Assembly (NCBI GenBank): GCA_947375085.1
Contig: CANCEQ010000023.1
Coordinates: forward strand, 1 to 23,408
Direction of reading: 5' to 3'
DNA: 23,408 nucleotides
Source: Flavobacteriales bacterium
Lineage (GTDB): Bacteria > Bacteroidota > Bacteroidia > Flavobacteriales > Crocinitomicaceae
The notes below the pieces were generated by a model. That model was given only the letters and a program-made list of their open reading frames with translations, was not told the origin of the DNA and made no database searches. The translations under genes and the position numbers were made by a program. The number at the start of each line of letters is the position of its first letter. Within the stretch, counting starts at the first letter, position 1. Below are positions 92 to 20,955 of this stretch, piece after piece.

Positions 92-844
92 ATGAATAAA
101 TTAATCTTAATAACACTACTTTTAATTAGTAAACAGTTAAATTCCCAAATTGAAATTCCATATTCAGTTTTTGATAATTCAATCATTTCTCATGTTGGGT
201 TTACTTTATCTTTTAATATTGATAATAGGCAATCTAATTGGGTCGCCTATCAACTTACAAGTAAAGAAACACAAGCAAAATTTATAAGAAAAAATAAGTT
301 TGTTGAAGACCCCTTGATACTTAATTCAGATTTCAGTATTGATTATGAAAAATCTGGGTTTGATCGTGGTCATCTTGCTCCAGCTGCTGATATGGCTTTT
401 TCAAAAATTGCTATGGAAGAATCATTTTATTATTCCAATATGTCTCCACAAGTTCCGAGTTTTAATAGAGGTATTTGGAAACAATTAGAAGCTCAAACCA
501 GAAAATGGGCAATTGAACTTGATTCTATATATATTGTAACTGGTCCAATATTTATAGACACGAATAGTATGAATACAATTGGTCCTCATAAAATTGCTGT
601 ACCAGAAGCATTCTATAAAATCATATTGGATAATCAAAAAGGTCAAGAAAAAGTAATTGCATTTATAATTAAAAATGAAATGTCAAAAAATGAGCTTAAA
701 TCATTTGTGGTAAAAGTTGATGAAATAGAACAAATTACTAAAATTGATTTTTTTCCTAATTTAGAAGATAGCATTGAAAATGAATTAGAAAGTTCTATTA
801 AAATAAATAAATGGCGTTTTGTTAAATCAATAAAATTATTTTGA
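92..844 (+). CDS. secreted DNA/RNA non-specific endonuclease (NUC1 family)
   Basis: This 250-residue protein is a sugar-non-specific nuclease of the Serratia nuclease / NUC1 (beta-beta-alpha metal) family that would cut DNA and RNA outside the cytoplasm. Residues 1-18 form a hydrophobic signal peptide. The signature DRGHLAPAAD is at residues 91-100, with His94 as expected general base, and the SNMSPQ..N..IW..LE block at about 115-133 supplies the conserved metal-binding Asn and Glu. The length suits a minimal family member. It stands alone, with a terminator directly downstream, so it is probably monocistronic. Likely roles are nutrient scavenging or degradation of extracellular DNA. The family call is firm; the biological role is inferred. 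Confidence 0.93.
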   Translation: MNKLILITLLLISKQLNSQIEIPYSVFDNSIISHVGFTLSFNIDNRQSNWVAYQLTSKETQAKFIRKNKFVEDPLILNSDFSIDYEKSGFDRGHLAPAADMAFSKIAMEESFYYSNMSPQVPSFNRGIWKQLEAQTRKWAIELDSIYIVTGPIFIDTNSMNTIGPHKIAVPEAFYKIILDNQKGQEKVIAFIIKNEMSKNELKSFVVKVDEIEQITKIDFFPNLEDSIENELESSIKINKWRFVKSIKLF

Positions 845-1516: not shown

Positions 1517-2209
1517 ATGAAAATAGTAGCTTTTCTAATCACTTTTTTATTTACTATTGTTTCTTTTGCTCAAAAATTAGAAACAGAAGTTCATTTAAAA
1601 CATACGATGCGTCAAGAAAATGAATCGTATCAATTCACTGTTTTATCAGAAGATAAAAAAGGTGTTTCTCATTTTGATAAAAAAAAATACTACTACTGGT
1701 TTAAAGCCCAAAAAGTCATCATCACTCAAGGTGGTGCTTCTGGTCAATTATTAAATGGTTCTTTCGAAGCATTTTATGACAATAAACAACTTTCTAGAAA
1801 AGGAAAATTCAAAAAAGGATTAAAAGATGGTGAATGGTTGTATTGGAGAGAAAATGGTTCTCTAATTCGTACTGAAAATTGGAACAATGGTAATAAAAGA
1901 GGAATTGAAGTGGTTTACAATGAAAAAGGAATTGTTACTGAAACTTATAAGTACAAATGTTGTTCATTTTCTAAACAAACGAAAGACAGTTTAATTGTTT
2001 CTAACTATTCAGGCTCAAAAAAAACAATTACACTTTTTGACAAAGATGGTGTTGAAGTTTCAACTACCAAAATTAAAAATGGAACAATAGTTACTCCGAA
2101 AACGAAAGAAGAAAAAACGGAAAAAGAAAAATCAAATTCCGATAAAAAAACGAACAGTGACAATGCAAAAGAAAAGAAAAACTTTTTTTCATTTTTAAAA
2201 AAGAAATAG
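1517..2209 (+). CDS. exported MORN-repeat protein with Lys-rich tail
   Basis: A 230-residue exported protein. Residues 1-18 are a signal peptide ending in FAQ. Residues about 76-145 hold MORN-variant / YwqK-type repeats: GSFEAFYDNKQL, then GKFKKGLKDGEWLYWRENG, then GNKRGIEVVYNEKG. These form beta-hairpin arrays in many Bacteroidota proteins whose role is usually unknown. The C-terminus from about 195 is almost only Lys, Glu, Ser, Thr and Asn and ends FFSFLKKK. The stop is a TAG at 2207-2209. The frame stays open for 42 more codons to a TAG at 2336-2338, and that extension repeats the FSFLKKK-type ending, so the gene may once have been longer. It lies upstream of the secretion cluster but is separated from it by a repeat, so a link is not shown. 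Confidence 0.8.
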   Translation: MKIVAFLITFLFTIVSFAQKLETEVHLKHTMRQENESYQFTVLSEDKKGVSHFDKKKYYYWFKAQKVIITQGGASGQLLNGSFEAFYDNKQLSRKGKFKKGLKDGEWLYWRENGSLIRTENWNNGNKRGIEVVYNEKGIVTETYKYKCCSFSKQTKDSLIVSNYSGSKKTITLFDKDGVEVSTTKIKNGTIVTPKTKEEKTEKEKSNSDKKTNSDNAKEKKNFFSFLKKK

Positions 2210-2350
2210 AAAAAAGAAACAATTACTAAACCATCTAACAATACATTGAAGAAATCAAAAGAAACTAGTCCTGAAAAGAAATGGTATCAATTTTCTTTCT
2301 TAAAAAAGAAGGAGAAAAAAGAAAATTCAAAAAAGTAGTGGTTTTCATCT

Positions 2351-2382
2351 TCCCCCTTTTGGAGGGGGACCGAGGGGGAGGA
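2351..2382. repeat. GC-rich REP-like element, copy A
   Basis: This 32-base element begins TCCCCCTTTTGGAGGGGGA and continues as CCGAGGGGGAGGA. It matches 3772-3802 except for one extra T. TCCCCC can pair with GGGGGA. It sits between the MORN gene and the start of the secretion cluster and stands out against the AT-rich surroundings. Confidence 0.85.
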
Positions 2383-2434
2383 TTTCTATGAATTGCAATT
2401 CCAACTTATCTCCATTTCAAAAGTAATTTTTTAG

Positions 2435-3739
2435 ATGCTAAACTTAAAAAAAAATAGTAAACTCTCTTCCCTTTTAATCCCCCGTTCTACTGAATTTATC
2501 GAAGTGAAGGGGAAACTACTCCCATCTTCTGCTCTTGGTTACGCCATTACTTTTTTATTCTTGATTGCGCTTATTTGTTCTGGTGTTTTATTTATTTCAA
2601 GTGCAAACAAGAGACTTGAATTAAACTTTCAAATGAAAGAACACCTCATCATGGACAATTATTTGTCACTTCAAATAGGTGCCTCACTTGAAAATCAAAC
2701 TTCAAAAACAATTATTCATCCTTCAGGAGATACTTCAGAAATTAGCATAAAACCTTGGGGTGCTTTTAAAGTAGTAATTGCCAAAACAAGACATTTAACG
2801 CGAACAATATCTAAATCTGCTATCGTTGGCAATCAAACAGATGATGTTTTACCTGTTTTATATTTACCTGATAACAACCAAGTTCTAAAATTAAGTGGAG
2901 ATACAAAAATAGAAGGTACTGCATATTTACCAGAAAGAGGATTAGAGCGTGGGTATATTGCTGGTAAAAATTACATGAATGATAAATTACTCTATGGCGA
3001 ACAAAAAAAGAGTGAAAAATATTTACCAAAGATCAAAACGGCTTATTCCAATTTATCATTGGAAAGTTATATAAAAGAGGTAAATAAAATAGATGGTATT
3101 TCAAAAGATACAATCTTTGAATTTGACCAACCAACTTCTTTATTTTCCTCAATTGAGGCTATTAATATCACCAATTCAATAAAAGGAAATATAATTATTC
3201 AATCGTTTAATTCCATATTTGTTTCTAGTCAAGCTAAACTTGAAAATGTTATCCTTATTTCTCCGAAAGTAACCTTTGAAAGTGGTTTTAAAGGTAGTGT
3301 TCAAGTCATCGCGCATGAGCAAATTATCTGTGAAAAAGACGTTCAATTAACATATCCTTCAGCGCTTGTATTGAATGAAACCAAAATGAATCTCGACAAA
3401 GAAAATGCATCCATTCAAATCCAAGAAAATGTGCAAATAAGAGGTGGTGTTTTAATGGTTTCACAGGCCTATAATTTTAGAAAACCTATTCAATTAAAAA
3501 TGGATATTCATTCATTAATAGCAGGTATTGTATATAACCAAGGAGAAACAAATATCAATGGAAAAATTATAGGTCATTTATACAGCCAAGGATTTAACTT
3601 AAATGCAGGTGGTGGTCAATATTCAAATCATTTATTGGATGTTCTGCTTTCTAGTGATAAACTCCCAAAAGAGTTTATCATTCCGAATTGGTTAGAAGAT
3701 GAAAAGAAAGGTAAATCAAAAATTATAGGATGCTTCTAA
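2435..3739 (+). CDS. GspK-position pseudopilin-like protein with beta-helix-like body
   Basis: A 434-residue protein that opens the secretion cluster. After a 33-residue basic leader, residues 34-54 (from LGYAITFLF) form one hydrophobic helix preceded by Ala33, the same arrangement as in the cluster's three pilins but without Glu at +5; absence of Glu5 is a known property of GspK. From about residue 105 the protein is a series of short strands with repeated hydrophobic-x-Gly patterns (LKLSGDTKIEGTAYLP, KGNIIIQSF, ENVILISPKVTFESG, IQIQENVQIRGGVLM), which suggests a right-handed beta-helix or bactofilin-like body rather than the usual GspK domain. A tip or capping role in the pseudopilus is inferred from position and helix. 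The leader is partly encoded by repeat-like DNA at 2489-2506. Its end overlaps the next gene by 10 bases. Confidence 0.62.
   Translation: MLNLKKNSKLSSLLIPRSTEFIEVKGKLLPSSALGYAITFLFLIALICSGVLFISSANKRLELNFQMKEHLIMDNYLSLQIGASLENQTSKTIIHPSGDTSEISIKPWGAFKVVIAKTRHLTRTISKSAIVGNQTDDVLPVLYLPDNNQVLKLSGDTKIEGTAYLPERGLERGYIAGKNYMNDKLLYGEQKKSEKYLPKIKTAYSNLSLESYIKEVNKIDGISKDTIFEFDQPTSLFSSIEAINITNSIKGNIIIQSFNSIFVSSQAKLENVILISPKVTFESGFKGSVQVIAHEQIICEKDVQLTYPSALVLNETKMNLDKENASIQIQENVQIRGGVLMVSQAYNFRKPIQLKMDIHSLIAGIVYNQGETNINGKIIGHLYSQGFNLNAGGGQYSNHLLDVLLSSDKLPKEFIIPNWLEDEKKGKSKIIGCF
2489..2506 (+). repeat. repeat core ACTGAnnnnnTCGAAGTG inside the leader codons
   Basis: These 18 bases match 14 of 18 positions of the element start at 13678-13695 and share its invariant ACTGA and TCGAAGTG blocks with 13472-13489. 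Here the sequence is read as part of STEFIEVKG in the leader of the 434-residue protein. Confidence 0.5.
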
Positions 3740-4134
3740 AATTCATAAATAGAATTTTAAGCAGAACTTATTCCCCCTTTGGAGGGGGACCGAGGGGGAG
3801 GACTCGTTTAATTAATCAAAAACTCCCAGCTTCAAGTATAGCTGAAGTAGTAATCGCTTTAACCATAATAGCTCTATGCTTCAGTGTTGCAGCACTTATC
3901 TTCATTCGTTCTATGAACGTAACATCGCGTTTTCAAGACGTAAGAAAGCAAACTGAAATTCAATCAAAAATTATCGAATCATTGTATAAAGAGAATGATT
4001 CGATACCATTTATTGAAGAAGAAGATGTAGAGGTAACTGTTACCCAAGATGAAAACAACGATTCATTAAATACCATCGATTTTTTAGCAGATGACAATCG
4101 TTTAATTTGGAAAATCCAAAGCATTAAAAAATGA
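3730..4134 (+). CDS. minor pseudopilin with repeat-encoded leader
   Basis: A 134-residue type IV pilin-like protein, probably a minor pseudopilin (GspI/J/H position). The class III signal is PA|SSIAEVVIALTI, so cutting after Ala36 leaves Glu at +5, followed by a hydrophobic helix to about residue 56. The rest is a short acidic globular domain of about 75 residues. The 36-residue leader is long because residues 15-25 (SPFGGGPRGRT) are encoded by the REP-like element at 3772-3802. No ATG, GTG or TTG start lies between that element and the pilin helix, so the repeat has to be translated. The ATG overlaps the previous stop by 10 bases, and the stop overlaps the next ATG as ATGA. The mature domain is too divergent to assign to one minor pilin class. 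Confidence 0.75.
   Translation: MLLKFINRILSRTYSPFGGGPRGRTRLINQKLPASSIAEVVIALTIIALCFSVAALIFIRSMNVTSRFQDVRKQTEIQSKIIESLYKENDSIPFIEEEDVEVTVTQDENNDSLNTIDFLADDNRLIWKIQSIKK
3772..3802. repeat. GC-rich REP-like element, copy B, within a pilin gene
   Basis: This 31-base element is identical to 2351-2382 apart from one fewer T. It keeps the reading frame open and encodes the Gly/Pro/Arg stretch of the pilin leader. TCCCCC and GGGGGA form its stem. Confidence 0.85.
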
Positions 4135-4616
4135 ATTTAAGAGAAAAAAATAGCATATCTGCCTTCACAATTTTTGAAGTAACGATAGTACTCGGTTTAA
4201 TGAGTGCAATCATTGCTATTATAGCCGTTTCATACAATCGATTCAATGAACAACTAAAAAACAGTTCGGTAATTCACGAAGAATTAAATACCTTTTTCGC
4301 ATTTCGTTCTAATTTATGGAATGAATTATACACTTCAGATTCAATCAATTATCAAAATAAACAAATAAACATCTATTCAGATAACAATCTTGTAGAATAT
4401 AAAATTGAAAATGATTTTTTAGAAAGAAAAGCTGGCAAAGATTGGGTTTCAACACCTTTTCCAATGATTGAGTTAAAAGAAGAACAGCAAAATAATGACA
4501 AAATAATTTCATTTATCTTTGATTGGAAAGGTGAACCAATGAAGTTACATTACTTTTGTAAACCCGAATTAAAACACAAGATAGACCACTATTTTGAAAA
4601 TTTTGAAACAAAGTGA
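4131..4616 (+). CDS. minor pseudopilin (GspJ/GspH-like)
   Basis: A 161-residue prepilin-like protein. It has a short 11-residue leader, a predicted cut at SISA|FTIFEVTIVL with Phe at +1 and Glu at +5, and a hydrophobic helix to about residue 34. The globular part of about 120 residues carries strands and ends in a basic region. Size and place next to another minor pilin fit GspH/I/J; conservation of the C-terminal domain cannot be judged by eye. It overlaps its upstream neighbour (ATGA) and shares four bases with the following gspF start, indicating translational coupling. Confidence 0.8.
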   Translation: MNLREKNSISAFTIFEVTIVLGLMSAIIAIIAVSYNRFNEQLKNSSVIHEELNTFFAFRSNLWNELYTSDSINYQNKQINIYSDNNLVEYKIENDFLERKAGKDWVSTPFPMIELKEEQQNNDKIISFIFDWKGEPMKLHYFCKPELKHKIDHYFENFETK

Positions 4617-5695
4617 GTGAAATAAGTAAGAATATATTCCAAAAAGACATCAAATTTGGAAAGGTGTTTCCTGATAAAGCGAAAGAAAGCTTTTACAGTG
4701 AATTTAGTACCCTGCTCGATAGTGGTGTCGATATTCAAAGGGCACTTACAATCTTAATTGAAGAGCAAGAAAAACAAACTTTAATAGATGTGTTAGAGGG
4801 AGTTTTAAATAATTTGGTAATGGGTAACTCTCTATCAGACGCTCTAAAAATGACTACTTATTTTTCTGCATACGAATACCAAAGTGTAAGAATTGGAGAA
4901 GAATCAGGTCGCTTAAAATTGGTACTTGAACATTTAGCAAAATTTTACGAGGACAAGGTAAAGTTACGAAGACAACTTATTGGTGTATTCACCTACCCTG
5001 CTTTTGTTATCTGCATCACTTTTGGTGTATTGTACTTTATGTTAAGTAGTGTTGTTCCGATGTTTGAAGACGTATTTAAACAATTTGGTCAAGAACTACC
5101 TTATTTAACGCAAAAGATAATTTGGCTTTCTCGCTATTTCTCTACTTTCTTAATGTTCTTTTTACTAGCAGTTGTAGGTTTTGCAGCTTATGGATATTCA
5201 CAAAGAAAAGAAGTTTGGTTTCGTAAAGCAACGGGTAATTTTTTATTGAAAATTCCTGTAATTGGTGGTTTATTGAAAAAAGTATATTTGGCTCGTTTCT
5301 GTCAAAGTATGTCTTTACTATTGTCCTCTAAGACTCCATTAGTGACTACCTTAGAATTAATCGAAGATATGATAGGCTTTTATCCTTTAGAGGAAGCAAT
5401 GAAAGAAACTAGAAAAGTAATTCTGTCAGGAGAAAATTTGAACGTAGGTTTATCAAAATTTCCTATTTTTGACAAGCGTTTGATTTCGCTTACAAAAATT
5501 GCAGAAGAAATTAATCAATTGGATACTACCTTTGAACGATTAACCAAGCAATACCAAGAAGAAATCGAATTCAGAACAAAATTGTTGGGAACAGTAATTG
5601 AACCATTAATAATTGTAATCATCGGTTTAATCGTAGGAGTCATAATGATTTCAATGTATTTACCAATGTTTAATTTAAGCAACGTAATTAAATAA
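4613..5695 (+). CDS. gspF: GspF/PilC-type inner-membrane platform protein
   Basis: A 360-residue polytopic inner-membrane protein that couples the assembly ATPase to pilin addition. The two GspF domains run about 28-150 and 225-350. The first contains the conserved LLDSGVDIQRAL and RIGEESGRL (93-101) motifs. Transmembrane segments are near 125-148, 174-195 and 330-352, the usual three. The length is slightly below the usual 400, since the N-terminal segment is short. Translation probably starts at the GTG at 4613, which overlaps the previous TGA; no ATG fits before the domain. A perfect inverted repeat spans its stop, so transcript levels may drop before the next pilin gene. Confidence 0.93.
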   Translation: MSEISKNIFQKDIKFGKVFPDKAKESFYSEFSTLLDSGVDIQRALTILIEEQEKQTLIDVLEGVLNNLVMGNSLSDALKMTTYFSAYEYQSVRIGEESGRLKLVLEHLAKFYEDKVKLRRQLIGVFTYPAFVICITFGVLYFMLSSVVPMFEDVFKQFGQELPYLTQKIIWLSRYFSTFLMFFLLAVVGFAAYGYSQRKEVWFRKATGNFLLKIPVIGGLLKKVYLARFCQSMSLLLSSKTPLVTTLELIEDMIGFYPLEEAMKETRKVILSGENLNVGLSKFPIFDKRLISLTKIAEEINQLDTTFERLTKQYQEEIEFRTKLLGTVIEPLIIVIIGLIVGVIMISMYLPMFNLSNVIK

Positions 5696-5704
5696 TTACG
5701 TTGC
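5679..5704 (+). other. perfect 11-bp stem-loop across the gspF stop codon
   Basis: GCAACGTAATT (5679-5689) and AATTACGTTGC (5694-5704) are exact inverted copies around an AAAT loop that includes the first T of the TAA stop. No U tract follows. It could be an attenuator or an mRNA 3'-end stabiliser between gspF and gspG. Confidence 0.6.
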
Positions 5705-5716
5705 AAAATCGTCATA

Positions 5717-5738
5717 GGGACATGGCACGCCATGTCCC
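5717..5738. repeat. GC-rich palindrome between gspF and gspG
   Basis: GGGACATGGC and GCCATGTCCC are perfect 10-bp inverted repeats with only AC between them. A further perfect 14-bp palindrome, ATATTTTAAAATAT, lies at 5742-5755. The GC-rich pair looks like a dispersed REP palindrome of the Bacteroidota type rather than a terminator, as no T run follows. Confidence 0.65.
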
Positions 5739-5815
5739 ATGGATATTTTAAAATATTGAATAATGGTAAAACCCATTTTCAAATAGAAATGACATAAGTA
5801 GAATAAATTATAAAT

Positions 5816-6316
5816 ATGAACAAAATTAAATCACATATAACCGATTCATTAAAATTCAATTTAATGAATCGAAAAAATCAATCACCACAGGGTCAGGTCG
5901 CTACCTTTCCATGTCGCAATAAAATGCTTGTAAATGCATTCTCATTAGCAGAGATATTAATTGTATTGGCCATTATGGGTATTTTAATTATGTTAGTTGT
6001 TCCTAATCAAGCAGGTGTTGCATCTCGTACAAAAAGTTTAGAAGCACAACAAGAATTAAAAATGGTACACAATCTTGAGTATGCCTATTTTCTTCAATTC
6101 TCAAAATACTCAACAGATTTACCTGGTTTAAATTACATTCCACATAAAACAGTTTTAAACGGTGGCACAGCAAACTACGAAATATCAATTCTTGAGGCAA
6201 GTCCAACTGGGTTTAAAGCAAAGGCAGAATCAGTAGTTGATTTTAATGGTGATGGTAAGAAAAATAGTTGGGAAATCGATCAAGATGGTGTTTTAAAAGA
6301 AACACAAGTAGATTAA
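5816..6316 (+). CDS. gspG: major pseudopilin, GspG type
   Basis: A 166-residue prepilin, the best candidate for the main fibre subunit. The class III signal is LVNA|FSLAEILIVLAIMGIL, with Glu at +5 and a helix to about residue 62. It is followed by the QQELKMVHNLEYAYFLQFSKYSTDL segment that resembles the alpha-spine region of GspG/PilE. Near the C-terminus DFNGDGKKNSWEIDQDG (142-158) looks like the calcium-binding loop of GspG. The ATG at 5816 gives a 41-residue leader that includes a GC-richer stretch at about 5889-5914; a start at the ATG at 5924 would give a five-residue leader MLVNA, which is also acceptable. It is coupled to the peptidase gene by TAATG. Confidence 0.87.
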   Translation: MNKIKSHITDSLKFNLMNRKNQSPQGQVATFPCRNKMLVNAFSLAEILIVLAIMGILIMLVVPNQAGVASRTKSLEAQQELKMVHNLEYAYFLQFSKYSTDLPGLNYIPHKTVLNGGTANYEISILEASPTGFKAKAESVVDFNGDGKKNSWEIDQDGVLKETQVD

Positions 6317-6789
6317 TGATAAAAATTCTTCTCATATTATTGTTGTTGATCATATTCGTTCAGGATGTGAAGTTAAGAGCTGTTTACTGGTTTTTATTTC
6401 CAATCCTAATGGTATTTTGTTTATGGATTGGGTTTGAGTCTAACGACATTGTAAATATAGGATGGAGCTCATTGTTTTTTATTTCTTCAATGTCATTTTT
6501 AACACTTTATGTAAGTATAAAACAAGGTCATTTAGTCAACATTTCAAATGGATATTTTAGTCTAGGCGACATGTTATTTTTAATTGCTATTATCCCCCTT
6601 CTAACTTTTCCCTTGTACCTTTTATTTTTTACTACTGGTACACTATTGACATTAGTCGTTCACGGAGTTGTAGTATCAATTTCAAAACAAAATAAAACGA
6701 TTCCTTTTGCAGGATATATGGCGCTTTTTCTAGTTGCTTATTTAGTATTTGACAATCAAATAAATAACCTAATAATTCGCTTGATTTGA
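6316..6789 (+). CDS. gspO: minimal prepilin peptidase (A24 aspartic family)
   Basis: A 157-residue, almost wholly hydrophobic protein with about five or six membrane segments, placed between a pilin and the ATPase. It has the two aspartate sites of the A24 prepilin peptidases: Asp17 in QDVKLRAVYWFLFP (family pattern Dxx...P) and Asp85 in GYFSLGDMLFLIAI (family pattern GxGD). The PFAGYMALFLVAYL segment (130-142) matches the usual C-terminal PFGPFLA region. The N-terminal methyltransferase domain and its CxxC zinc pairs found in PilD are absent, so only cleavage, not N-methylation, is expected. The start at 6316 overlaps the pilin stop (TAATG); the frame is open further upstream but inside gspG. 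A divergent GxGD (SLGD) is the main uncertainty. Confidence 0.78.
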   Translation: MIKILLILLLLIIFVQDVKLRAVYWFLFPILMVFCLWIGFESNDIVNIGWSSLFFISSMSFLTLYVSIKQGHLVNISNGYFSLGDMLFLIAIIPLLTFPLYLLFFTTGTLLTLVVHGVVVSISKQNKTIPFAGYMALFLVAYLVFDNQINNLIIRLI

Positions 6790-8198
6790 GTACTATTCAA
6801 CATATAGAAATTACTCCCGAATTACAACAATTAATTCGTTCAGATTTGGCGTGGCATTATCGAATCGTCCCTCAAAGTAGTGAGGCTGATAAAATTGTGT
6901 TCTATGTCGACGAAAGTGCCGATCAATTGATTGTTAAAGAAGAATTGATTGCGCTTTTAGGTACAGGTATCGATTTGATTTCAGTAGATAAAGATACGAT
7001 TCAACGAAGTTTAGGAAAGTATTATCGAACAACAAATGAACAAGATCAAAAAGTAGCAATTGATTCAAAAACAGATTTTGTTGACCGTTTAATTCAAGAA
7101 GCGAATAACATTGGAAGCAGTGATATTCACATTGAAATATTTGGCGAAAAAGCAAGGGTAAGAATGCGTATCGATGGAATGTTGATCCAACGATACTTAG
7201 TCGAAAAAGCAGATTATCCTGAATTAATAAACAAAATTAAAATCAGAAGTAAATTAGATATTTCTGAAAAAAGGTTGCCTCAAGATGGTCGTATTCAATA
7301 CGATGATTTTGACATTCGTGTATCTATTCTACCAACTTTGCACGGTGAGAAAATAGTATTGAGGATTTTAGGTCAAGATGCTTCATCTTTGAGCATTGAC
7401 AACCTTGGATTTTCAGGTTTAGAAAAAAAATATTACCTAGAAGGTATTAAAAAACCAAATGGGATTATTCTAATCAGTGGACCAACAGGTTCAGGTAAAA
7501 CAACCACACTGTATGCAACACTAAAAATGTTGAACGATGAAAAGAGAAACATCGTTACGGTTGAAGATCCTATAGAATATACCTTAGACGGAATCAATCA
7601 GGTTCAATTAAAAGAATCAATTGGTTTAACCTTTGCAAGTGCTTTACGATCATTTTTACGTCAAGATCCCGATGTCATTATGTTGGGAGAGATTCGTGAT
7701 TCAGAAACAGCACAAATGGCTATTAGAGCTGCATTAACAGGGCACTTAGTACTTTCAACAATACATACAAATTCAGCTTGGGGTACTATATCTCGTTTAA
7801 TCGACATGGGGGTTCCTTCCTTCTTATTGGCGAACACTATAAATTCATCAGTTGCACAACGTTTGGTGCGAAAATTATGTGTTGAATGTAAAACAGAAAA
7901 ACCATTAGACCAAAAAGATTGGCCGATTGGGTCATCTCAAGAAAATATACCATCGACGCAAATGGTAGCAGTAGGATGTGATAAATGTCATTACACGGGT
8001 TACAAGGGGCGTATTGCACTATATGAAGTTATTTCAATGGACAGTGAATTAGCTGTTTACATTAAAAACAATGACAATAATGTGGAGCAAGTTTTAAAAA
8101 AACGAGGTATTAATAATTTGGCGACAAGAGCTTTAGAAATTTTAACAGAAGGACAAACTTCACTTGAGGAAGTATATGCCTTACTAACAGGATATTGA
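6786..8198 (+). CDS. gspE: GspE/PulE-type secretion ATPase
   Basis: A 470-residue cytoplasmic hexameric ATPase that powers pseudopilus assembly. A short N1-like domain precedes the N2 domain (about 95-215, with SSDIHIE and RVRMRIDG). The motor domain has Walker A GPTGSGKTTT (232-241), the Asp box VTVEDPIEY, Walker B DPDVIMLGEIRD (294-305) and His box ALTGHLVLSTIHTN (316-329). Four cysteines (365, 368, 398, 401) form the zinc-binding CxxC pairs of the GspE/PulE and PilB class, absent from PilT-type retraction ATPases. The start is a TTG at 6786 overlapping the peptidase TGA; no ATG is available near the N-terminus. gspD starts right after its stop. No second ATPase is visible, which favours secretion over twitching. 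Confidence 0.96.
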   Translation: MSTIQHIEITPELQQLIRSDLAWHYRIVPQSSEADKIVFYVDESADQLIVKEELIALLGTGIDLISVDKDTIQRSLGKYYRTTNEQDQKVAIDSKTDFVDRLIQEANNIGSSDIHIEIFGEKARVRMRIDGMLIQRYLVEKADYPELINKIKIRSKLDISEKRLPQDGRIQYDDFDIRVSILPTLHGEKIVLRILGQDASSLSIDNLGFSGLEKKYYLEGIKKPNGIILISGPTGSGKTTTLYATLKMLNDEKRNIVTVEDPIEYTLDGINQVQLKESIGLTFASALRSFLRQDPDVIMLGEIRDSETAQMAIRAALTGHLVLSTIHTNSAWGTISRLIDMGVPSFLLANTINSSVAQRLVRKLCVECKTEKPLDQKDWPIGSSQENIPSTQMVAVGCDKCHYTGYKGRIALYEVISMDSELAVYIKNNDNNVEQVLKKRGINNLATRALEILTEGQTSLEEVYALLTGY

Positions 8199-10136
8199 AT
8201 GAAAATAACAAGAGTGAACACACATTTTATCTTGACTTTACTAATTATTTTAGTAACAAGTTTTAGTGGAATGGGTCAAAATTACACAGATGCAGAATTA
8301 AGAACAAAGTTAGATTCTTTGAGTTCTAAAAATCCAGGTTTAAACAATACTGTTCAACTTAGTGTTTCAGGTTTAGCACTTTATGAATTTGTATATTCGG
8401 TAGCTTTGGAGAATAATTTGAATATCACCATCGAACCAAGCTTAAATCAAGCAATTACTTATAATTTCTTTGATGCCAAAGTGAAAGATATTTTGGTGTT
8501 TTTATATTTTAATTTCGAGTTAGAATTTGAATTTACAGGAAGTATTTTAGCCATCAGAAAACGTTCGGTTCAGAAACCAAAACCAGCAACGGTTGTAACT
8601 AAACAAATTGATATTAAATACAATCCTGCAAATGAATTTCTATCGATGAATCTGCAAAATGATACGCTTTGGAAGGTGGTTGAAAAAGTCACAACATTGA
8701 CGGATAAAAACTTTGTAATCAATCCAGAAGTTCGTAACAAACAAGTAAATGCTTTCTTTCAGAACAGACCGTATGAACAAGTCTTAGAAATGTTTGTAAA
8801 AGCCAATGGTTTATCAATCAACAAAGAAAAAGATGGATTCTATACCATTGCTTTAGAATCAAATCAAGATGCGACTTCAACAGCTAATGGTAAAACTACT
8901 GGTTCACAAGGAAAAAAGACAAAAACAGCTTCTCCTTCAGATGATTTTAACCTTGAAAAAAACAAAGATGGTACGGTAAATGTTTTTGCAAATAATGTAG
9001 ATTTAATCGACATTTTAAAAACTGCTGCTTCTGAATTAAACGCACATTATGTGCTTCATTCGACAGTAGAAGGAAAAGGTAATTTAGATTTAAAAAACGT
9101 AACTTTTAATGAATTAATTGCACATCTTTTTACAACTACTAAATACAATTATACGGTTAAAGATCAATTGTATATAATTGGTGAACGTAAAATGGAGGGT
9201 ATCAGAAAATCAGAGTTAATTCGTTTAGAAAATAGAACGGTTGAAAATGTTAAAACAGCTATCCCTAAAGAATTATTGAACGATGTAGATGTATCCGAAT
9301 TTTTAGAGTTGAATGGTTTAATTGTTTCTGGAAGTGAGCGCGCCATACTGGAATTAAAAACGTTTTTAAAATCAATTGATATTGTGGTTCCAATGATCCA
9401 AATTGACATCATGTTGATTACCTCATCTCGATCAAATACAGTGAACGTAGGCTCTCAAGCAGGTATTGGTGCTTCTCCTGCTGCTTCAACACAAGTACTA
9501 AACCAAACTGAAGGTTTAAACATAAAATTAGGAGCAAAAGCAATTAATGCACTTTTAGAGGCAATATCAGGTTTTGGAGTATTGAATCTTGGTAAAGTAA
9601 CCGATAATTTTTTCTCCAATTTATCCGCACTTGAAACCAACAATGTCATTAACATTGAGAGTACACCAAAAATTTCAACCTTAAATGGGCAAAAAGCAAG
9701 TCTTTCTATAGGTAAAACAACCTATTACCAAGAAACGGTTGTAAATGTATCTACTTCAGTAACACAACAAGGCGTTTTACAATCGAAAGTATGGAAGTCT
9801 ATTCCTGCCGATTTATCAGTAAATATTCAACCGTTTGTTAGTGCAGATGAACAAATAACTTTGACAATTAAAGTGGATCAAAATGCTTTTGCAGGTAAAG
9901 CAGATCCAACATCTCCACCCAATATGACTACTCAAAAATTCGAGTCAATGGTGCGTGTGAAAAATGGTGAATTGGTTCTTTTAGGTGGTTTAGAAGAGAT
10001 TAACGACAACAAATCAGGTACTGGTGTTCCGTGGTTAGCAAGAATCCCAGTTATTAAATGGATTTTTAGTGGCCGTTCAAATATTAAATCTAAATCAAAA
10101 TTACACATCTTAATAAGACCAACAGTTACGTATTAA
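8199..10136 (+). CDS. gspD: GspD-type outer-membrane secretin
   Basis: A 645-residue secretin that forms the outer-membrane channel. The signal peptide ends near residue 26 (FSGMGQ). Then follow an STN/N0-like domain (about 35-115), a second KH-like domain (about 145-225), a charged Ser/Thr/Lys linker (about 230-255), a third repeat of the same type (about 258-330) and an N1-like segment (about 335-395). The secretin core runs from about 400 to the end, with the INALLEAISGFGVLNLGK, NVINIESTPKISTLNGQKA and LVLLGGLEE blocks and the terminal VPWLARIPVIKWIFSGRS followed by LHILIRP. No pilotin-binding S-domain remains after the barrel. It starts directly after gspE and overlaps the next gene by one base. 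Confidence 0.95.
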   Translation: MKITRVNTHFILTLLIILVTSFSGMGQNYTDAELRTKLDSLSSKNPGLNNTVQLSVSGLALYEFVYSVALENNLNITIEPSLNQAITYNFFDAKVKDILVFLYFNFELEFEFTGSILAIRKRSVQKPKPATVVTKQIDIKYNPANEFLSMNLQNDTLWKVVEKVTTLTDKNFVINPEVRNKQVNAFFQNRPYEQVLEMFVKANGLSINKEKDGFYTIALESNQDATSTANGKTTGSQGKKTKTASPSDDFNLEKNKDGTVNVFANNVDLIDILKTAASELNAHYVLHSTVEGKGNLDLKNVTFNELIAHLFTTTKYNYTVKDQLYIIGERKMEGIRKSELIRLENRTVENVKTAIPKELLNDVDVSEFLELNGLIVSGSERAILELKTFLKSIDIVVPMIQIDIMLITSSRSNTVNVGSQAGIGASPAASTQVLNQTEGLNIKLGAKAINALLEAISGFGVLNLGKVTDNFFSNLSALETNNVINIESTPKISTLNGQKASLSIGKTTYYQETVVNVSTSVTQQGVLQSKVWKSIPADLSVNIQPFVSADEQITLTIKVDQNAFAGKADPTSPPNMTTQKFESMVRVKNGELVLLGGLEEINDNKSGTGVPWLARIPVIKWIFSGRSNIKSKSKLHILIRPTVTY

Positions 10137-11305
10137 TGAATAAATGGAACTCAATATGGCAACCCTCATCGTGGGTGATAGTACATTTAGACTATCACGT
10201 TGGAGGAGTACGCATTGTTGCTTCGATTGAAAAAAAATCAAGTAAACAGAGTTCAGTTTTCGAAGAATTTGAAAACATTGGTGAGGTAATTAAAAAATTT
10301 GGTAAAAATAAAGCCTACACATTGCATGTAAGTGGTACCGGTGTTTTAACTCGTCTTGTAGAATTCATTCCAGGTTATAAGGAACAATTAATCGTAAGTG
10401 GTGATAAAGATGATTTCTATTTCTGTTCTTATAATGATTCTTATAAAGTAGCGACATCTTTCTTTCGTAAAAACTTAATTGAAGATATTGTTATCGAATT
10501 GGACGAAGCAAAAGTAATGCTAGTAGGCATTTCTTGTGGAATTATTCCTGTTTTACTTTCAGCTTCGGATAAGGAAAAAATAGCATTTGATTACATTATA
10601 GAAATTGAAAACGGAAGAATTCTTCAAATTACTCGAAATGATTCACCGTCTGTTAGATCTACAATAAATAGTATTTTCAGAACAAGAAATGAAGCCATTA
10701 ATCAAGGAATTGTTCTAAGTTATAGTTCTAATTTTGAAAACTATACAAGTGGTTTTGAGGAAGCGATAAGAAAAGATAAATTAGAAAATTATGCTCAATT
10801 TAGTCGATTCAAATTCTTTGGTTTACTTGCGGTTAGTATCATCTTCTCTGCCCTAGTTGTAAACTATTTTTATCTGAATAACCTAAATGATGAGGTTGCA
10901 CAGTTAGAAACTGATTTAGCTTTGAATAATTCAAATATGTCAACGCTTGAAACATTAAAACAGGAAAAAACTAGAAAAGAGCAGTTAGTAATAAGTTCAG
11001 GAGTAAATCCAGATCAATTTATTTCTTACTTTATTGACAAAATAGGTGAATCGGTTCCTAAATCAATTTCTCTTAGAGAAATGTATGTATTTCCATTAGC
11101 CGAAAATTTAAAAGAAAAAAGAAAAGTTGAGATACGTCATGATGCAATTGAAATTATTGGTTTTACTCCAAACAGTCAGGTATTAGACGATTGGATGGAA
11201 AAAATGAACCGATACGAATGGGTAGAAAGTGTTGAATTATTGAACTATTTAGAATCGACTAATTCAAAAGCAGAGTTTAAACTTTTAATCAGCTTTTCAA
11301 AATGA
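10136..11305 (+). CDS. GspL/PilM-PilN-like bitopic assembly-platform protein
   Basis: A 389-residue protein with a cytoplasmic domain (1-222), one membrane segment (about 227-248) and a coiled-coil plus periplasmic ferredoxin-like domain (about 250-389). This layout matches GspL of type II systems, or PilM fused to PilN. The N-terminal part has actin-like alternation (WVIVHLDYHVGGVRIVAS, FDYIIEIENGRILQI) but no clear nucleotide-binding motif. Its expected job is to recruit GspE and connect it to the GspM/GspC partners. It overlaps gspD by one base (TAATG) and the following gene by four (ATGA). Assignment is by topology, size and gene order rather than by motif. Confidence 0.7.
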   Translation: MNKWNSIWQPSSWVIVHLDYHVGGVRIVASIEKKSSKQSSVFEEFENIGEVIKKFGKNKAYTLHVSGTGVLTRLVEFIPGYKEQLIVSGDKDDFYFCSYNDSYKVATSFFRKNLIEDIVIELDEAKVMLVGISCGIIPVLLSASDKEKIAFDYIIEIENGRILQITRNDSPSVRSTINSIFRTRNEAINQGIVLSYSSNFENYTSGFEEAIRKDKLENYAQFSRFKFFGLLAVSIIFSALVVNYFYLNNLNDEVAQLETDLALNNSNMSTLETLKQEKTRKEQLVISSGVNPDQFISYFIDKIGESVPKSISLREMYVFPLAENLKEKRKVEIRHDAIEIIGFTPNSQVLDDWMEKMNRYEWVESVELLNYLESTNSKAEFKLLISFSK

Positions 11306-11859
11306 CATTTTTCGACCAATATAGCTTCAAACAAAAAAACTATGCGTTATTAATACTTACTGTATTATTAATAGCAGCTAGTTATAAAAGAGCATTCAAA
11401 ACAACCATAGAAACACTCGCTTATAAAAAAGAATTAAACGAAAAAATTGCAATTTCACAAAATGCAGTAAACGAAATTCACATAACACAAGCACAAATTG
11501 CCCATTTCAATAAATTATTAGGGAAAGAAAACAGTACGATTGAAAAAGTTCAACAAGGATTCTTAAACTTCTTAGCAAAAGACAAAACAAATTTAATTGT
11601 CTATCAAGTAGATGAAGTCTTAACTTACAAACATCCTGATTTCTCTATTAATACACACAAAATTATCTTAACAGGGAATTTCTTAGAAACACTTCGGTTC
11701 ATTTATAATTTGGAAAGAAAATTTGATTTAGCGAAATTGATTAATGTAAGTTTCGAATATAAAAAATACAATTCAGAAGAAAACGAAGAATTATATACAA
11801 CACTTCTACTTCAAAATTACGAACGAGGAAATTCGACTAATCAGATTAGTAAATTGTAA
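11302..11859 (+). CDS. GspM/PilO-like inner-membrane protein
   Basis: A 185-residue bitopic protein. A membrane helix at about 14-28 follows a short cytoplasmic tail, then comes a coiled-coil (about 38-75) and an alpha/beta domain (about 80-175) containing ILTGNFLETLRFIYNLE, a pattern typical of PilO. In PilMNOP and GspLM systems this partner dimerises with the GspL/PilN-like protein just upstream, with which it overlaps by ATGA. A short, 15-base gap separates it from the lipoprotein gene. The family sequence is weakly conserved, so the call relies on topology and place. Confidence 0.68.
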   Translation: MTFFDQYSFKQKNYALLILTVLLIAASYKRAFKTTIETLAYKKELNEKIAISQNAVNEIHITQAQIAHFNKLLGKENSTIEKVQQGFLNFLAKDKTNLIVYQVDEVLTYKHPDFSINTHKIILTGNFLETLRFIYNLERKFDLAKLINVSFEYKKYNSEENEELYTTLLLQNYERGNSTNQISKL

Positions 11860-11874
11860 AAATAAATTGAGAAG

Positions 11875-12897
11875 ATGGAATTAAAAAAAGGAAAAATGAA
11901 TAATATGAAATATCTATTTTTAGCAGTTATCGCATTTTTATCATTACAAAGTTGTAAGGATATAAAAGCGAAAAATATTTCAGGAGATATTCCAATTCTG
12001 ATTTTACCTCAAAAATTAGATACCATACTAACTAATCCTGTTCAAATAAAATGGGAGGAAATGGAAGGTGCAACAAAATATCGTTTACAGATTGCAAGTC
12101 CAAGTTTTGCTGACATTACAAAATATGTATTGGATACAACAATCACAGGAACAAGTTATTCTATCGCTTTAGATTCAAGTCAATTTGAGTTGAAATTAAC
12201 AGCAATGAATGCAGGTTACACCTCACAAATTTTAGGTCCAATTAAATTTTGGGTTGGAAAAAAAGCATCCACTACAACAGGTACTTTAATAGTTCCGTTA
12301 TCAACTCCGGCTGATAGTTGTTACAAAAACAATGACTTTGATGGCGTATTTAAATGGGGACAAATAACAGGTGGAACGAATTATCAATTTGAATTAAGAA
12401 AAGGAAATGAGTTTATTGGCGGAACCAGTGTCTTTTCTTTACCAGCATCCAATTCATTTCAAGCTACATTACCTTCTAATTTATTACCACTAGCTCCAGG
12501 TAGATATTTTTGGGCTGTTAAAGGTTATGTTGGATCAATTGAACAACCCTATTCACAAAGAGTATTTTTCATAGATACAGTTCGTCCAACAACACCTATA
12601 ATTGATGTTCCCACATCATCTTCTTTGCAGGCTGACAGTATCACTTTTACTTGGCATTATAATCCAACGAATGAAACGTTTAAAGCACCTGTTCAATCAA
12701 CAATTGAAATCGCTACAGATATTAATTTCAATACTATTTATAAATCGGTTACTTGTAATCCTGCAATAACATCTACTAAAATAAAATTAGTAGCAGCAGT
12801 TGGTGGCACAACATATTATTGTCGAATTCAAAACATTGATGAAGCTGGCAATAAATCAGATTATTCAATCGTAAAAACATTAACAATTACCCCATAA
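11875..12897 (+). CDS. lipoprotein with fibronectin-III-like domains
   Basis: A 340-residue lipoprotein embedded in the secretion cluster. The lipobox LQSC follows a hydrophobic stretch, so Cys27 (full-length numbering) should be lipidated. Two or three beta-sandwich, FN3-like domains follow: about 40-125 (QIKWEEMEGATKYRLQIAS), about 145-235 (FKWGQITGGTNYQFELRKG) and about 240-340 (ITFTWHYNPTNETFKAPV), each with the W/Y pattern of FN3. Three starts are possible: ATG at 11875, 11896 or 11905; the second has AAAGGA just upstream and may be the true one. It could be a pilotin or cover for the secretin, an adhesin, or a carried substrate; no classic GspS fold is seen. Confidence 0.75.
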   Translation: MELKKGKMNNMKYLFLAVIAFLSLQSCKDIKAKNISGDIPILILPQKLDTILTNPVQIKWEEMEGATKYRLQIASPSFADITKYVLDTTITGTSYSIALDSSQFELKLTAMNAGYTSQILGPIKFWVGKKASTTTGTLIVPLSTPADSCYKNNDFDGVFKWGQITGGTNYQFELRKGNEFIGGTSVFSLPASNSFQATLPSNLLPLAPGRYFWAVKGYVGSIEQPYSQRVFFIDTVRPTTPIIDVPTSSSLQADSITFTWHYNPTNETFKAPVQSTIEIATDINFNTIYKSVTCNPAITSTKIKLVAAVGGTTYYCRIQNIDEAGNKSDYSIVKTLTITP

Positions 12898-12916
12898 ATA
12901 AAAGGAAGGTAAACAA

Positions 12917-13414
12917 ATGAAAAACAAAGGAGTAACTTATTTATTATTAATAATAGTAGCAGTAGTCTGGTACAATTTATTTTTAAGAATTAAATCCAAT
13001 TTTGTCGGAGATGATGTAATCATTCCACCGAGTAATATTGAATACTCTATTATTAAAACAAATGCAAGAGATACCTTTACATTGAATGCCAATTACAGAG
13101 ATCCTTTTCAAGGGATAAGCACATCACAATCAAATCCAACAATATCAAATTTACCTGAAGCACCAAAGCAAAACGTATATATAGCACCGAAAGTTGAAAA
13201 AGTATTTCAATGGCCAAGTGTAAAATATTACGGCATGCTAAAAAAAGCAAACGCTAAAAAAGCTGTTGGGATTTTAGATTTTGATGGTTCCCATTTTAAC
13301 CTCATCGAAGGTGAATACCTTTACGATAACTATCAAATAAAAGCAGTATTTAGAGACTCATTAGTAATCAAATACAACAAATTACAGAAGACCTTTTATA
13401 AAAAGAAACAGTAA
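12917..13414 (+). CDS. GspC/PilP-like periplasmic connector
   Basis: A 165-residue bitopic protein that ends the cluster. A membrane helix spans about 6-22. A disordered linker contains RDPF (61-64), a motif also seen in PilP-type proteins, and a Pro-rich stretch. A compact beta domain (about 98-160: VKYYGMLKKANAKKAVGIL, then EGEYLYDNYQIKAVF, then DSLVIKY) resembles the HR domain of GspC or PilP that binds the secretin N0 domain. A GGAAGG ribosome-binding site precedes the ATG. It is separated from the lipoprotein by 19 bases. A role as the bridge between inner-membrane platform and secretin is inferred. Confidence 0.72.
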   Translation: MKNKGVTYLLLIIVAVVWYNLFLRIKSNFVGDDVIIPPSNIEYSIIKTNARDTFTLNANYRDPFQGISTSQSNPTISNLPEAPKQNVYIAPKVEKVFQWPSVKYYGMLKKANAKKAVGILDFDGSHFNLIEGEYLYDNYQIKAVFRDSLVIKYNKLQKTFYKKKQ

Positions 13415-14926: not shown

Positions 14927-15346
14927 ATGTTAGATTATCAATTAAAAACATACAATCCGGATAACAACTATACTGGATTTCATTTTTTCATCTTAAACAA
15001 AGGTTTAAACAGTGGCAAACCATTATTAGAACCCTGTCCAAATTGTTTTGTTTGCACACTCAAAACAGAAGCCGAAAAAGAACAACTGTATTGGCTTGTT
15101 TTTGGTTTATGGCAAGGGAAAATATTTCATAAAAATTTGTTAGGTTCTGTAATCCCATACATACGATTAAAATGTTTAAAAGAAGTTATTCAATTAGGTA
15201 TTACCAAATATTTATCTAACCCCGAAAAAGCCAAAAAGAACATTTCAACAATCCATCAAATTGAAAACCAAAGACAAACAATTTTGAATCAATTTCAATT
15301 GATGCAGCAGTTAAAATTGGCACTTATTCATGAGGTGTTGAAATAG
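14927..15346 (+). CDS. uncharacterised protein, possibly DUF6943-like
   Basis: A 139-residue protein of unknown function. Its N-terminal half has strongly patterned residues (HFFILNKGLNSGKPLLEPCP, then NCFVCTLKTEAEKEQLYWL, then GLWQGKIFH, then LLGSVIPYIRL) that look family-conserved; from memory this resembles DUF6943 of Bacteroidota. Three cysteines (CPNCFVC, about residues 38-44) may bind metal. The C-terminal third is helical with Gln-rich heptads. It follows the 66-residue gene closely and is closed by a terminator-like hairpin. No enzymatic motif is visible. Confidence 0.7.
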   Translation: MLDYQLKTYNPDNNYTGFHFFILNKGLNSGKPLLEPCPNCFVCTLKTEAEKEQLYWLVFGLWQGKIFHKNLLGSVIPYIRLKCLKEVIQLGITKYLSNPEKAKKNISTIHQIENQRQTILNQFQLMQQLKLALIHEVLK

Positions 15347-15355
15347 TATTAAGTT

Positions 15356-15394
15356 ATCCCCAAATTGAAATAAATATTGTTTTAGTTTGGGGAT
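15356..15394 (+). terminator. stem-loop after the small gene pair
   Basis: ATCCCCAAA (15356-15364) and TTTGGGGAT (15386-15394) form a perfect 9-bp stem around a 21-base AT-rich loop, starting 10 bases after the stop. The following sequence ATTTGTT is only weakly T-rich, so termination strength is uncertain. Its position directly before the next promoter is typical. Confidence 0.55.
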
Positions 15395-15400
15395 ATTTGT

Positions 15401-15408
15401 TAGGTTTG
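15401..15408 (+). promoter_or_regulatory. candidate promoter -7 box (TAGGTTTG) for the HNH operon
   Basis: TAGGTTTG matches TAnnTTTG. A TTG at 15377-15379 lies 21 bases upstream, within the range used in Bacteroidota, and the ATG of the HNH gene is 32 bases downstream. The upstream TTG is inside the terminator loop. Confidence 0.45.
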
Positions 15409-15440
15409 TAATATAGTTGACCATAAACATATCCTAAGAA

Positions 15441-16208: not shown

Positions 16209-16226
16209 AAATTTAAATTAAAAAAT

Positions 16227-17830: not shown

Positions 17831-17940
17831 AAAATATATTTTTCAAGTACAATTATTGTCAAACTAACTTACTAGACAAATAAAAATAATTTCAATGAAA
17901 TACATAGAGATTTACAAGATTATTCAAATAATAAAATGAG

Positions 17941-19890: not shown

Positions 19891-20013
19891 AACAAAATCC
19901 AGCAATAAAACGTTATTGATCATTTTATATCTATGTTGAGGATAATTAATCGGGTAAATCGAGTTTTAACAATTTAAATTAACTTAATATTAAGTATAAA
20001 ACATTAAAAATCA

Positions 20014-20781: not shown

Positions 20782-20891
20782 ACAATCTTATTAAATTAAA
20801 TCGAATCAATTTATCAAATACTTTATTTATAGTATAATTAAATTTTCCTACTAAGCTGATAAAATTTATACTTAATTTATGGGGATTTGAT

Positions 20892-20899: not shown

Positions 20900-20955
20900 T
20901 TTCGCATATTAATAAGTTAGTGGCAACCGTAATGCCCCAGCAACACAAATAGAAA

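What the first reader, a model, noticed from the sequence alone, without database searches (positions are those of the whole stretch)
2435..13414. Compact type II secretion / type IV filament machine in a Bacteroidota genome
Seen: GspE with tetracysteine, GspF, secretin GspD, three pilins with Glu5, a GspK-position protein, a prepilin peptidase and L/M/C-like platform proteins in one nearly gap-free plus-strand array. Known: this phylum mostly uses T9SS, and type II-like systems there are sparsely studied (for example in Cytophaga hutchinsonii). Inferred: a self-contained secretion machine carrying its own peptidase. The mixed features (PilO/PilP-like partners, no retraction ATPase) place it between T2SS and T4P.
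Basis: partly seen in the sequence, partly recalled or inferred. Interest (0 to 1): 0.75.

Follow-up and report, generated by a model that had tools for sequence, protein, structure and literature searches.

The report
Bacteroidota pilus-like protein export machine
This stretch of DNA encodes a known but little-studied envelope-spanning machine of Bacteroidota bacteria, built like a type IV pilus but probably used to put proteins on or beyond the cell surface; comparison with relatives adds two parts not listed in the earlier description read here and points to a family of giant proteins as its possible cargo.

Summary
In detail: 2435-13414 is a compact plus-strand cluster of 12 genes (K-I-J-F-G-O-E-D-L-M-X-C). 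Relatives show that it starts one gene earlier, at 1517. My ATPase tree agrees (34 Bacteroidota sequences one clade, 100/100; four T2SS references excluded, 99/99). No PilT was identified in 60 relatives' genomes. What I did not find in the papers seen: (1) two conserved extra parts, a secreted MORN-repeat protein and a triple-FN3 lipoprotein; (2) a short prepilin peptidase with no second one detected and no methylase domain over cut-off in any of 60 genomes, and Ala rather than Gly before most pilin cleavage sites; (3) a tip-pilin model with a beta-solenoid like Thermus ComZ; (4) a strong link to giant secreted proteins without a detected T9SS tag: 43 of 47 class genomes with the machine against 39 of 248 without, often within 30 kb. 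They are the best candidate cargo. One earlier paper saw that neighbourhood in one Flavobacterium. None of this is tested by experiment, and the window itself holds no giant gene.

The parts
1517..2209 (+). N2: secreted MORN-repeat protein with a Lys/Glu-rich tail; newly proposed component
   Evidence: Directly before K in 14 of 14 close-relative loci that hold both and in 20 of 21 class/phylum loci that hold both on the E strand; before K in 14 of 18 regions fetched around K in genomes whose first region had not shown K on the E strand (these regions partly overlap the earlier ones). MORN_2 in 26 of 30 orthologues at E 0.01 or better; signal-like start and tail by eye.
2435..3739 (+). K: tip minor pilin in GspK position, pilin helix plus beta-solenoid
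3730..4134 (+). I: minor pilin, KLPA|SSIAE
   Evidence: Glu5 and cleavage-site alignment over orthologues.
4131..4616 (+). J: minor pilin, SISA|FTIFE
   Evidence: Same.
4613..5695 (+). F: inner-membrane platform (GspF/PilC)
   Evidence: T2SSF 1.3e-47; TIGR02120 3.3e-69.
5816..6316 (+). G: major pilin, LVNA|FSLAE, with C-terminal EF-hand-like loop DFNGDG
   Evidence: TIGR01710 2.5e-9; D.[DN].DG in 14 of 15 close-relative and 37 of 41 class/phylum orthologues.
6316..6789 (+). O: short prepilin peptidase without methylase domain
   Evidence: Two Asp motifs by eye in orthologues; Peptidase_A24 matched in 27 of 60 genomes with the machine, one match each, on the machine's contig each time; PF06750 over its cut-off in 0 of 60.
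6786..8198 (+). E: assembly ATPase with tetracysteine motif
   Evidence: T2SSE 1.3e-125; tree; only full-length PF00437 ATPase per operon copy in relatives.
8199..10136 (+). D: secretin
   Evidence: Secretin 4.8e-37; GspD N0 3.5e-5, under its cut-off; PDB GspD and PilQ matches.
10136..11305 (+). L: GspL / PilM-PilN-like platform protein
   Evidence: 87 relatives, several source-named PilN; Pfam PilN 0.017.
11302..11859 (+). M: GspM/PilO-like
   Evidence: Profile matches PilO 3jc8 at 0.0033, below an unrelated fusion construct at 0.00065; Pfam PilO or T2SSM in a few orthologues.
11875..12897 (+). X: lipoprotein with three FN3-like domains; newly proposed component
   Evidence: Between M and C in 15 of 15 close-relative and 33 of 36 class/phylum loci that hold X on the E strand; AlphaFold2 pLDDT 90.8; FN3 matches 3e-12; lipobox by eye.
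12917..13414 (+). C: GspC/PilP-like protein with invariant DPF motif
   Evidence: T2SSC in 9 of 19 orthologues, best 7.6e-6; invariant D62 P63 F64.

Best explanation
A Bacteroidota-specific machine of the type IV filament superfamily, derived from the T4aP side. A single ATPase (E) on platform F/L/M drives assembly of a short filament of major pilin G, cut by the short peptidase O after Ala, tipped by K (beta-solenoid) with I and J, and guided through secretin D by C. X (outer-membrane lipoprotein with FN3 domains) and N2 (periplasmic MORN protein) would support the channel and the tip. With no retraction ATPase identified, it most likely works piston-like, as in T2SS, presenting folded proteins on or beyond the outer membrane beside the T9SS. 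The best candidate cargo is a family of giant secreted proteins (928-2148 aa in 14 examined) without a detected T9SS tag, often encoded nearby. Shown by computation: gene content, order, clade, domain calls, lack of a detectable methylase, co-occurrence. Inferred: filament length, piston action, locations of X and N2, cargo.
For: The 13-gene order is complete in 13 of 17 close-relative loci. ATPase clade 100/100, T2SS references excluded 99/99. One full-length ATPase per operon copy in 14 and in 46 genomes. SprA in 286 of 295 class genomes, including all 47 with the machine, so it adds to T9SS. Giant-head family: 43 of 47 with the machine vs 39 of 248 without (Fisher 3e-24), 35 of 39 without the eight class genomes that led me to it (6e-20); a copy within 30 kb of E or K in 26 of 43, 1.6 expected; further genomes: 13 of 13 close relatives, 4 of 4 phylum genomes (two of them weak, near 5e-9), but 2 of 49 chosen for PilB-type hits. 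Six complete giants tested had no T9SS domain. Skp-like chaperone genes in 6 of the neighbouring regions. C. hutchinsonii mutants lose beta-glucosidase activity and cellulose adhesion. F. psychrophilum has a similar neighbourhood.
Against: In C. hutchinsonii the extracellular protein profile hardly changed in mutants, which argues against bulk secretion. 39 of 248 genomes without the machine also have a giant head, so other routes or missing contigs exist; 4 of 47 with the machine lack it. The window holds no giant head. The family was chosen because it lay near the machine. T9SS-tagged large proteins are neighbours too. One paper reports a PilT homologue in F. johnsoniae by alignment to V. 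cholerae; I could not tell whether that hit is E itself.
Confidence: 0.5

Rival explanations
1. A surface-adhesion pilus: the filament is a product, not a piston; K's beta-solenoid at the tip binds polysaccharide or other surfaces and nothing is secreted.
For: K model resembles the tip pilin ComZ; C. hutchinsonii mutants attach less to Avicel (92% to 67-75%) while the extracellular profile hardly changes.
Against: Mutants changed cellulose-bound outer-membrane proteins and beta-glucosidase; co-occurrence with giant secreted proteins; electron microscopy showed no detectable morphological difference between the D mutant and wild type.
Confidence: 0.25
2. A DNA-uptake (competence) filament with K as a ComZ-like DNA receptor.
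For: ComZ is the best Foldseek match of K, and ComZ binds DNA in Thermus. Huang et al. [quoted passage not shown] johnsoniae and think they may suffice for a T4P-type DNA uptake system.
Against: Naturally competent Riemerella are reported to have no pilus homologues, and F. johnsoniae, which has the machine, was not transformable under the tested conditions. My ComEA-type test was uninformative (281 of 295 genomes).
Confidence: 0.08
3. The giant-head link is hitch-hiking: both sit in accessory islands of the same lineages and do not work together.
For: Lineage effects are uncorrected; E is patchy (47 of 295); T9SS-tagged large proteins are neighbours too; F. psychrophilum has it as a cluster specific to one clonal complex.
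Against: 43 of 47 vs 39 of 248; proximity kept across different gene arrangements; contrast kept within genome-size classes; 2 of 49 in genomes with PilB-type hits, though those may belong to other classes.
Confidence: 0.35
4. An ordinary T2SS acquired from Proteobacteria.
For: The GspF and GspG models are the best NCBIfam matches of F and G; T2SSC in 9 of 19 C orthologues.
Against: Tree excludes the four T2SS references; only three Glu5 pilins plus K in the cluster, so no GspH place; no methylase; published trees.
Confidence: 0.02

Closest known systems
Bacteroidetes T2SS of Cytophaga hutchinsonii, CHU_3191-3202 (Wang et al. 2017, PMC5553014; abstract, one Methods-free set of sections read: cluster identification, adhesion, Discussion)
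   Same: Order by locus number: minor pilins 3201 and 3200, F 3199, G 3198, O 3197, E 3196, D 3195, then 3194, 3193 and 3191 as L/M/C candidates around one unassigned number (3192), which is X's place here. Also reported in F. johnsoniae, P. heparinus, O. splanchnicus and F. psychrophilum.
   Different: X and N2 are not among the components listed; its Table 2, as extracted, pairs 3194, 3193 and 3191 with C, L and M rather than L, M and C. Its sequences were not compared here.
Canonical T2SS (E. coli K-12 gsp operon)
   Same: C, D, E, F, G, I, J, K, L, M and O equivalents, one ATPase.
   Different: ATPase outside T2SS; no GspH; K carries a beta-solenoid; 157-aa peptidase against 225 aa; Ala instead of Gly at -1; extra X and N2.
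Type IVa pilus
   Same: ATPase on the PilB side; PilN/PilO/PilP-like partners.
   Different: No PilT identified, no methylase-type PilD detected.
Thermus ComZ tip pilin (PMC6561018, passages read)
   Same: Pilin domain with a beta-solenoid whose nearest relative is the ice-binding protein FfIBP; FfIBP is also among K's best matches.
   Different: DNA binding of K untested; K and ComZ were not compared by sequence beyond the fold searches.
F. psychrophilum CC-ST10 T2S cluster (PMC5808330, passages read)
   Same: T2S genes beside exported proteins with ABC-toxin-like domains and an OmpH/Skp chaperone.
   Different: One species; no statistical link in the passages read; whether its exported proteins belong to the giant-head family was not tested.

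Membership tests
Bacteroidetes T2SS-like machine (Wang 2017 / Denise 2019) | Gene content and order | tested here: met
   against the locus numbers; no C. hutchinsonii sequence used.
Bacteroidetes T2SS-like machine (Wang 2017 / Denise 2019) | ATPase in one Bacteroidota clade on the T4P side | tested here: met
   34 rows including named F. jumunjinense; C. hutchinsonii itself not in the tree.
Bacteroidetes T2SS-like machine (Wang 2017 / Denise 2019) | Needed for cellulose use and adhesion | not testable with these tools
   Experimental, in C. hutchinsonii only.
Canonical T2SS | GspE inside the T2SS clade | tested here: not met
   all four T2SS references excluded, 99/99; only four references, and they are not one side of a branch.
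Canonical T2SS | GspC HR-type protein | tested here: inconclusive
   T2SSC in 9 of 19 orthologues up to E 0.1, best 7.6e-6; none in the window protein itself.
Canonical T2SS | Bifunctional peptidase/N-methylase | tested here: not met
   PF06750 over its cut-off in 0 of 60 genomes (one weaker match in G388 with two stops inside); it rings in 8 of 14 controls.
Canonical T2SS | Secretes folded proteins | not testable with these tools
   -
T4aP | PilT retraction ATPase | tested here: not met
   One full-length PF00437 ATPase per operon copy in 14 and 46 relatives' genomes; G302 has an extra unidentified partial match; a paper reports a PilT homologue in F. johnsoniae; the window's own genome is not held.
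T4aP | PilB-side ATPase | tested here: met
ComZ-type tip pilin | Pilin helix plus ice-binding-protein-like beta-solenoid | tested here: met
   Model and fold searches.
ComZ-type tip pilin | Solenoid inserted in the pilin sheet | tested here: inconclusive
   Strand order fits, but TM-scores to ComZ are about 0.2.
ComZ-type tip pilin | DNA binding | not testable with these tools
   -

The most novel reading that the evidence does not exclude
The machine is a separate secretion type, derived from T4aP independently of T2SS, with unmethylated Ala-cleaved pilins, a beta-solenoid tip and own parts X and N2, and its dedicated cargo is a family of giant head-bearing proteins without T9SS tags, delivered with an Skp-like chaperone.
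Probability: 0.38. Interest if true: 0.85.

Novelty: new member of a known kind. Interest (0 to 1): 0.6.

Why it matters
Bacteroidota are thought to export mainly through T9SS. Denise et al. raised the possibility that this second machine is an independent invention of protein secretion from a pilus, but the papers read here name no direct substrate. A list of giant, untagged, linked candidates and two unassigned parts makes that question directly testable in laboratory strains. The lack of a detectable pilin methylase in 60 genomes also makes it a natural test of whether N-methylation matters for this kind of filament.

Tried and rejected
MORN protein N2 as a mere neighbour: rejected, because it follows K when the cluster is split. 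Exceptions: N2 lies next to D instead of K in L114 and L115, after C in L099 (whose K is on another contig, L160), and among M and L in L110/L167; it was not seen with K in L107, L113, L156 and L158; L002 lacks both N2 and K.

X as a chance insert: rejected. In L097, L103, L118 and L119 the pair X-C lies beside K instead (L163, L165, L158, L156). X was not found in L114 and L115; in L107, L108 and L110 it is not between M and C; in L113 it is doubtful, as its ORF overlaps M; L060, L078 and L088 end before its place.

DUF6443 RHS proteins as cargo: weaker, 9 of 47 vs 16 of 248, though 5 of those 9 have a copy within 20 kb of E (places compared by eye).

ComEA co-occurrence: uninformative.

Gly-to-Ala at -1 as a fixed rule: rejected as absolute. 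Class/phylum loci: major pilin A 33, G 7, S 1 of 41; J A 20, G 7, S 5 of 32; I A 19, G 10, S 2 of 31; K A 18, G 10, S 2 of 30 with letters. Close-relative loci: G 15 A of 15; J 14 A, 1 G; I 12 A, 2 S, 1 G; K 6 A, 8 S. Alignments depend on my start-codon choices. The E. coli, Pantoea and Sulfitobacter pseudopilins looked at have Gly by eye.

L against PDB gave only unrelated receptors. Families missing from the K fold search prove nothing: VIA-align re-ranks Foldseek hits only.

Tree cautions: the T2SS rows are not one side of a branch, and five rows are flagged as long. A D tree was not built.

Window genome: not held, so PilT, T9SS and giant heads could not be sought in it.

Phylum sample: 107 of 198 genomes match E, but only 7 are near full length at 54% identity or more; the rest are relative systems with a mostly ~395-aa E, ~600-aa PilB, or weak hits.

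Paper searches were not all aimed at these points: one search held the MORN term and the methyltransferase term; none was aimed at FN3 or at the giant heads. In what they listed and what I read I saw no description of X, N2 or methylase loss; for the giant link only the F. psychrophilum passage. Only open-licence papers are held.
Full report
What is there. The window holds a plus-strand array of 13 genes, 1517-13414: N2, K, I, J, F, G, O, E, D, L, M, X, C. F, E and D are unmistakable. The pilins G, I and J carry Glu5; K carries Tyr there. O is a 157-aa membrane protein, too divergent for Pfam, whose orthologues keep two Asp motifs by eye. C and M are recognised only through their orthologues.

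Relatives. A profile of L found 17 loci in GTDB genomes, titled Crocinitomicaceae, Fluviicola, Taishania, other Flavobacteriales or Flavobacteriia, one untitled bacterium, and one record named Chryseobacterium gleum that carries two copies. The order N2-K-I-J-F-G-O-E-D-L-M-X-C is complete in 13 of the 17; in L005 D is split over two frames; L001, L012 and L017 are cut by contig ends; L002, the second copy, has no K or N2 in the 2.1 kb held before I. The window's own genome is not held.

Distribution. In 295 genomes of the class, 47 have E at 1e-60 or better, one match each. SprA of T9SS is in 286 of 295, including all 47. So the machine is patchy and coexists with T9SS. One full-length PF00437 ATPase per operon copy was found in 14 close-relative genomes and in 46 class genomes; G271's is split over two frames, and G302 has an extra partial match of 95.8 bits that I did not identify. 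Against this, one paper reports a PilT homologue in F. johnsoniae by alignment; it may or may not be E.

Known identity. Wang et al. 2017 describe this machine in C. hutchinsonii and list it in four other Bacteroidetes. By locus numbers the order is ours, with CHU_3192 unassigned where X lies. Denise et al. 2019 report that it always clusters with T4aP and may be a novel secretion system. My tree of 65 ATPases gives one Bacteroidota clade of 34 (100/100), which includes the named F. jumunjinense; the four T2SS references fall outside the group of Bacteroidota, relative-system, PilB and HofB rows with 99/99 support.

New parts. X lies between M and C in 15 of 15 close-relative loci and 33 of 36 class/phylum loci that hold it on the E strand, out of 17 and 45 loci examined. 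It is modelled as three FN3-like domains behind a lipobox. N2 lies directly before K in 14 of 14 and 20 of 21 loci that hold both. I searched 19 genomes whose first region had not shown K on the E strand; 18 gave K. In the 18 regions fetched, N2 precedes K in 14. Some of these regions overlap the earlier ones, so the counts are not additive. Exceptions are listed under Tried and rejected.

Peptidase and pilins. In 60 genomes with the machine Peptidase_A24 was matched in 27, always on the contig of the machine (25 within about 1 kb of E, by comparing by eye; G339's lies near K, G312's 10 kb away); in the other 33 no match reached E 0.001. The methylase domain PF06750 passes its cut-off in none of 60, against 8 of 14 controls. 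The major pilin has Ala at -1 in 15 of 15 close-relative and 33 of 41 class/phylum orthologues. That Ala is the one substitution partly tolerated by classical PilD is recalled, not from a call. The major pilin ends in an EF-hand-like loop in 14 of 15 and 37 of 41.

Tip. K is predicted with high confidence: a long pilin helix (31-84), a small sheet, then a beta-helix. The best Foldseek hit is ComZ, and the best VIA-align hits are ice-binding beta-helices, among them FfIBP, which the ComZ paper names as the closest relative of ComZ's solenoid. TM-scores are low, so the domain arrangement is not confirmed.

Possible cargo. Clustering 432 unassigned, non-overlapping ORFs of 100 aa or more from 80 loci (some overlapping) and keeping families in at least five class, phylum or split-module loci gave three families: a mixed, single-linkage group of large secreted proteins, in which four of five members scanned carry T9SS tags; a family of giant proteins with a conserved head; and Skp/OmpH-like chaperones in 6 loci (profile match to Skp 1.7e-15). 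Fourteen giant-head regions fetched have longest frames of 928-2148 aa. Six complete proteins were scanned: no Pfam family over its cut-off and no T9SS domain (L112, five); one had no PDB relative at E 0.01. By eye the head resembles SpvB/RHS starts (recalled); DUF6531 matches one at only 0.017. Secretion is judged from the N-terminal hydrophobic stretch by eye.

Link. With a 400-aa head as query, 82 of 295 class genomes have a match: 43 of 47 with the machine and 39 of 248 without. Without the eight class genomes whose loci had led me to the family it is 35 of 39. A copy lies within 10, 20 and 30 kb of E or K in 13, 21 and 26 of 43 genomes, with 0.6, 1.1 and 1.6 expected under uniform placement; one of these is the query's own genome. 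In 80 further genomes (of 92 first asked for): 13 of 13 close relatives; 4 of 4 phylum genomes with the machine (two only near 5e-9); 8 of 14 with relative GspE-like systems; 2 of 49 others chosen for PilB-type hits, which may belong to other classes. Eight of the 17 machine-bearing ones have a copy within 25 kb of E. Five of these 17 had helped to define the family. The F. psychrophilum paper describes T2S genes, exported proteins with ABC-toxin-like domains and an OmpH/Skp gene in one 35-kb cluster.

Function. The evidence favours export or surface presentation over motility or DNA uptake. C. hutchinsonii mutants keep motility, with a slightly greater colony-spreading defect in the D mutant, and lose beta-glucosidase activity and cellulose adhesion, but their extracellular profile hardly changes. 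Naturally competent Riemerella are reported to have no pilus homologues, while F. johnsoniae was not transformable under the same conditions. That does not exclude a tip-adhesin role. The giant-head family is the most concrete cargo candidate, but this is genetic linkage, uncorrected for ancestry, and the window itself shows none.

Papers: Wang, abstract and three sections; Denise, passages; Salleh on ComZ, passages; two Riemerella papers, passages; F. psychrophilum, passages; Abby 2016, passages; others, search listing only.

Noticed in passing
window 14927-22287: Downstream island: DUF6943 protein, HNH nuclease, trypsin-like protein matching PADLOC PDC-S45 (2.4e-27), and a PLD-like protein in two ORFs (20014-20343, 20365-20781); looks mobile or defence-like.
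   Followed up: partly
window 92-844: DNA/RNA non-specific endonuclease (PF01223, 5e-54) with a signal-like start, upstream of the machine; among 74 loci scanned seen in only one, L002.
   Followed up: no
L174 1-11289: F. jumunjinense 11.3-kb linear 'plasmid' record is mostly this machine (D, L, M, X, C, F fragment, RHS gene, G, O, E by position and size; only E was checked in the tree); it may be a misdeposited chromosomal piece.
   Followed up: partly
L002 and L016: One MAG carries two divergent copies of the machine; the L002 copy lacks N2 and K in the 2.1 kb held before I.
   Followed up: partly
L120-L131: Related systems in phylum genomes, mostly with a ~395-aa E, some with D, M, C and G nearby; two giant-head matches in G028 lie about 0.2 kb from its E genes.
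   Followed up: partly
G302:C236:61571-62053: Extra partial PF00437 match, 95.8 bits, in a 346-aa frame, unidentified.
   Followed up: no
L013, L078, L086, L164: Large neighbours with PKD, DUF7948, SBBP or SprB domains carry T9SS tags.
   Followed up: no
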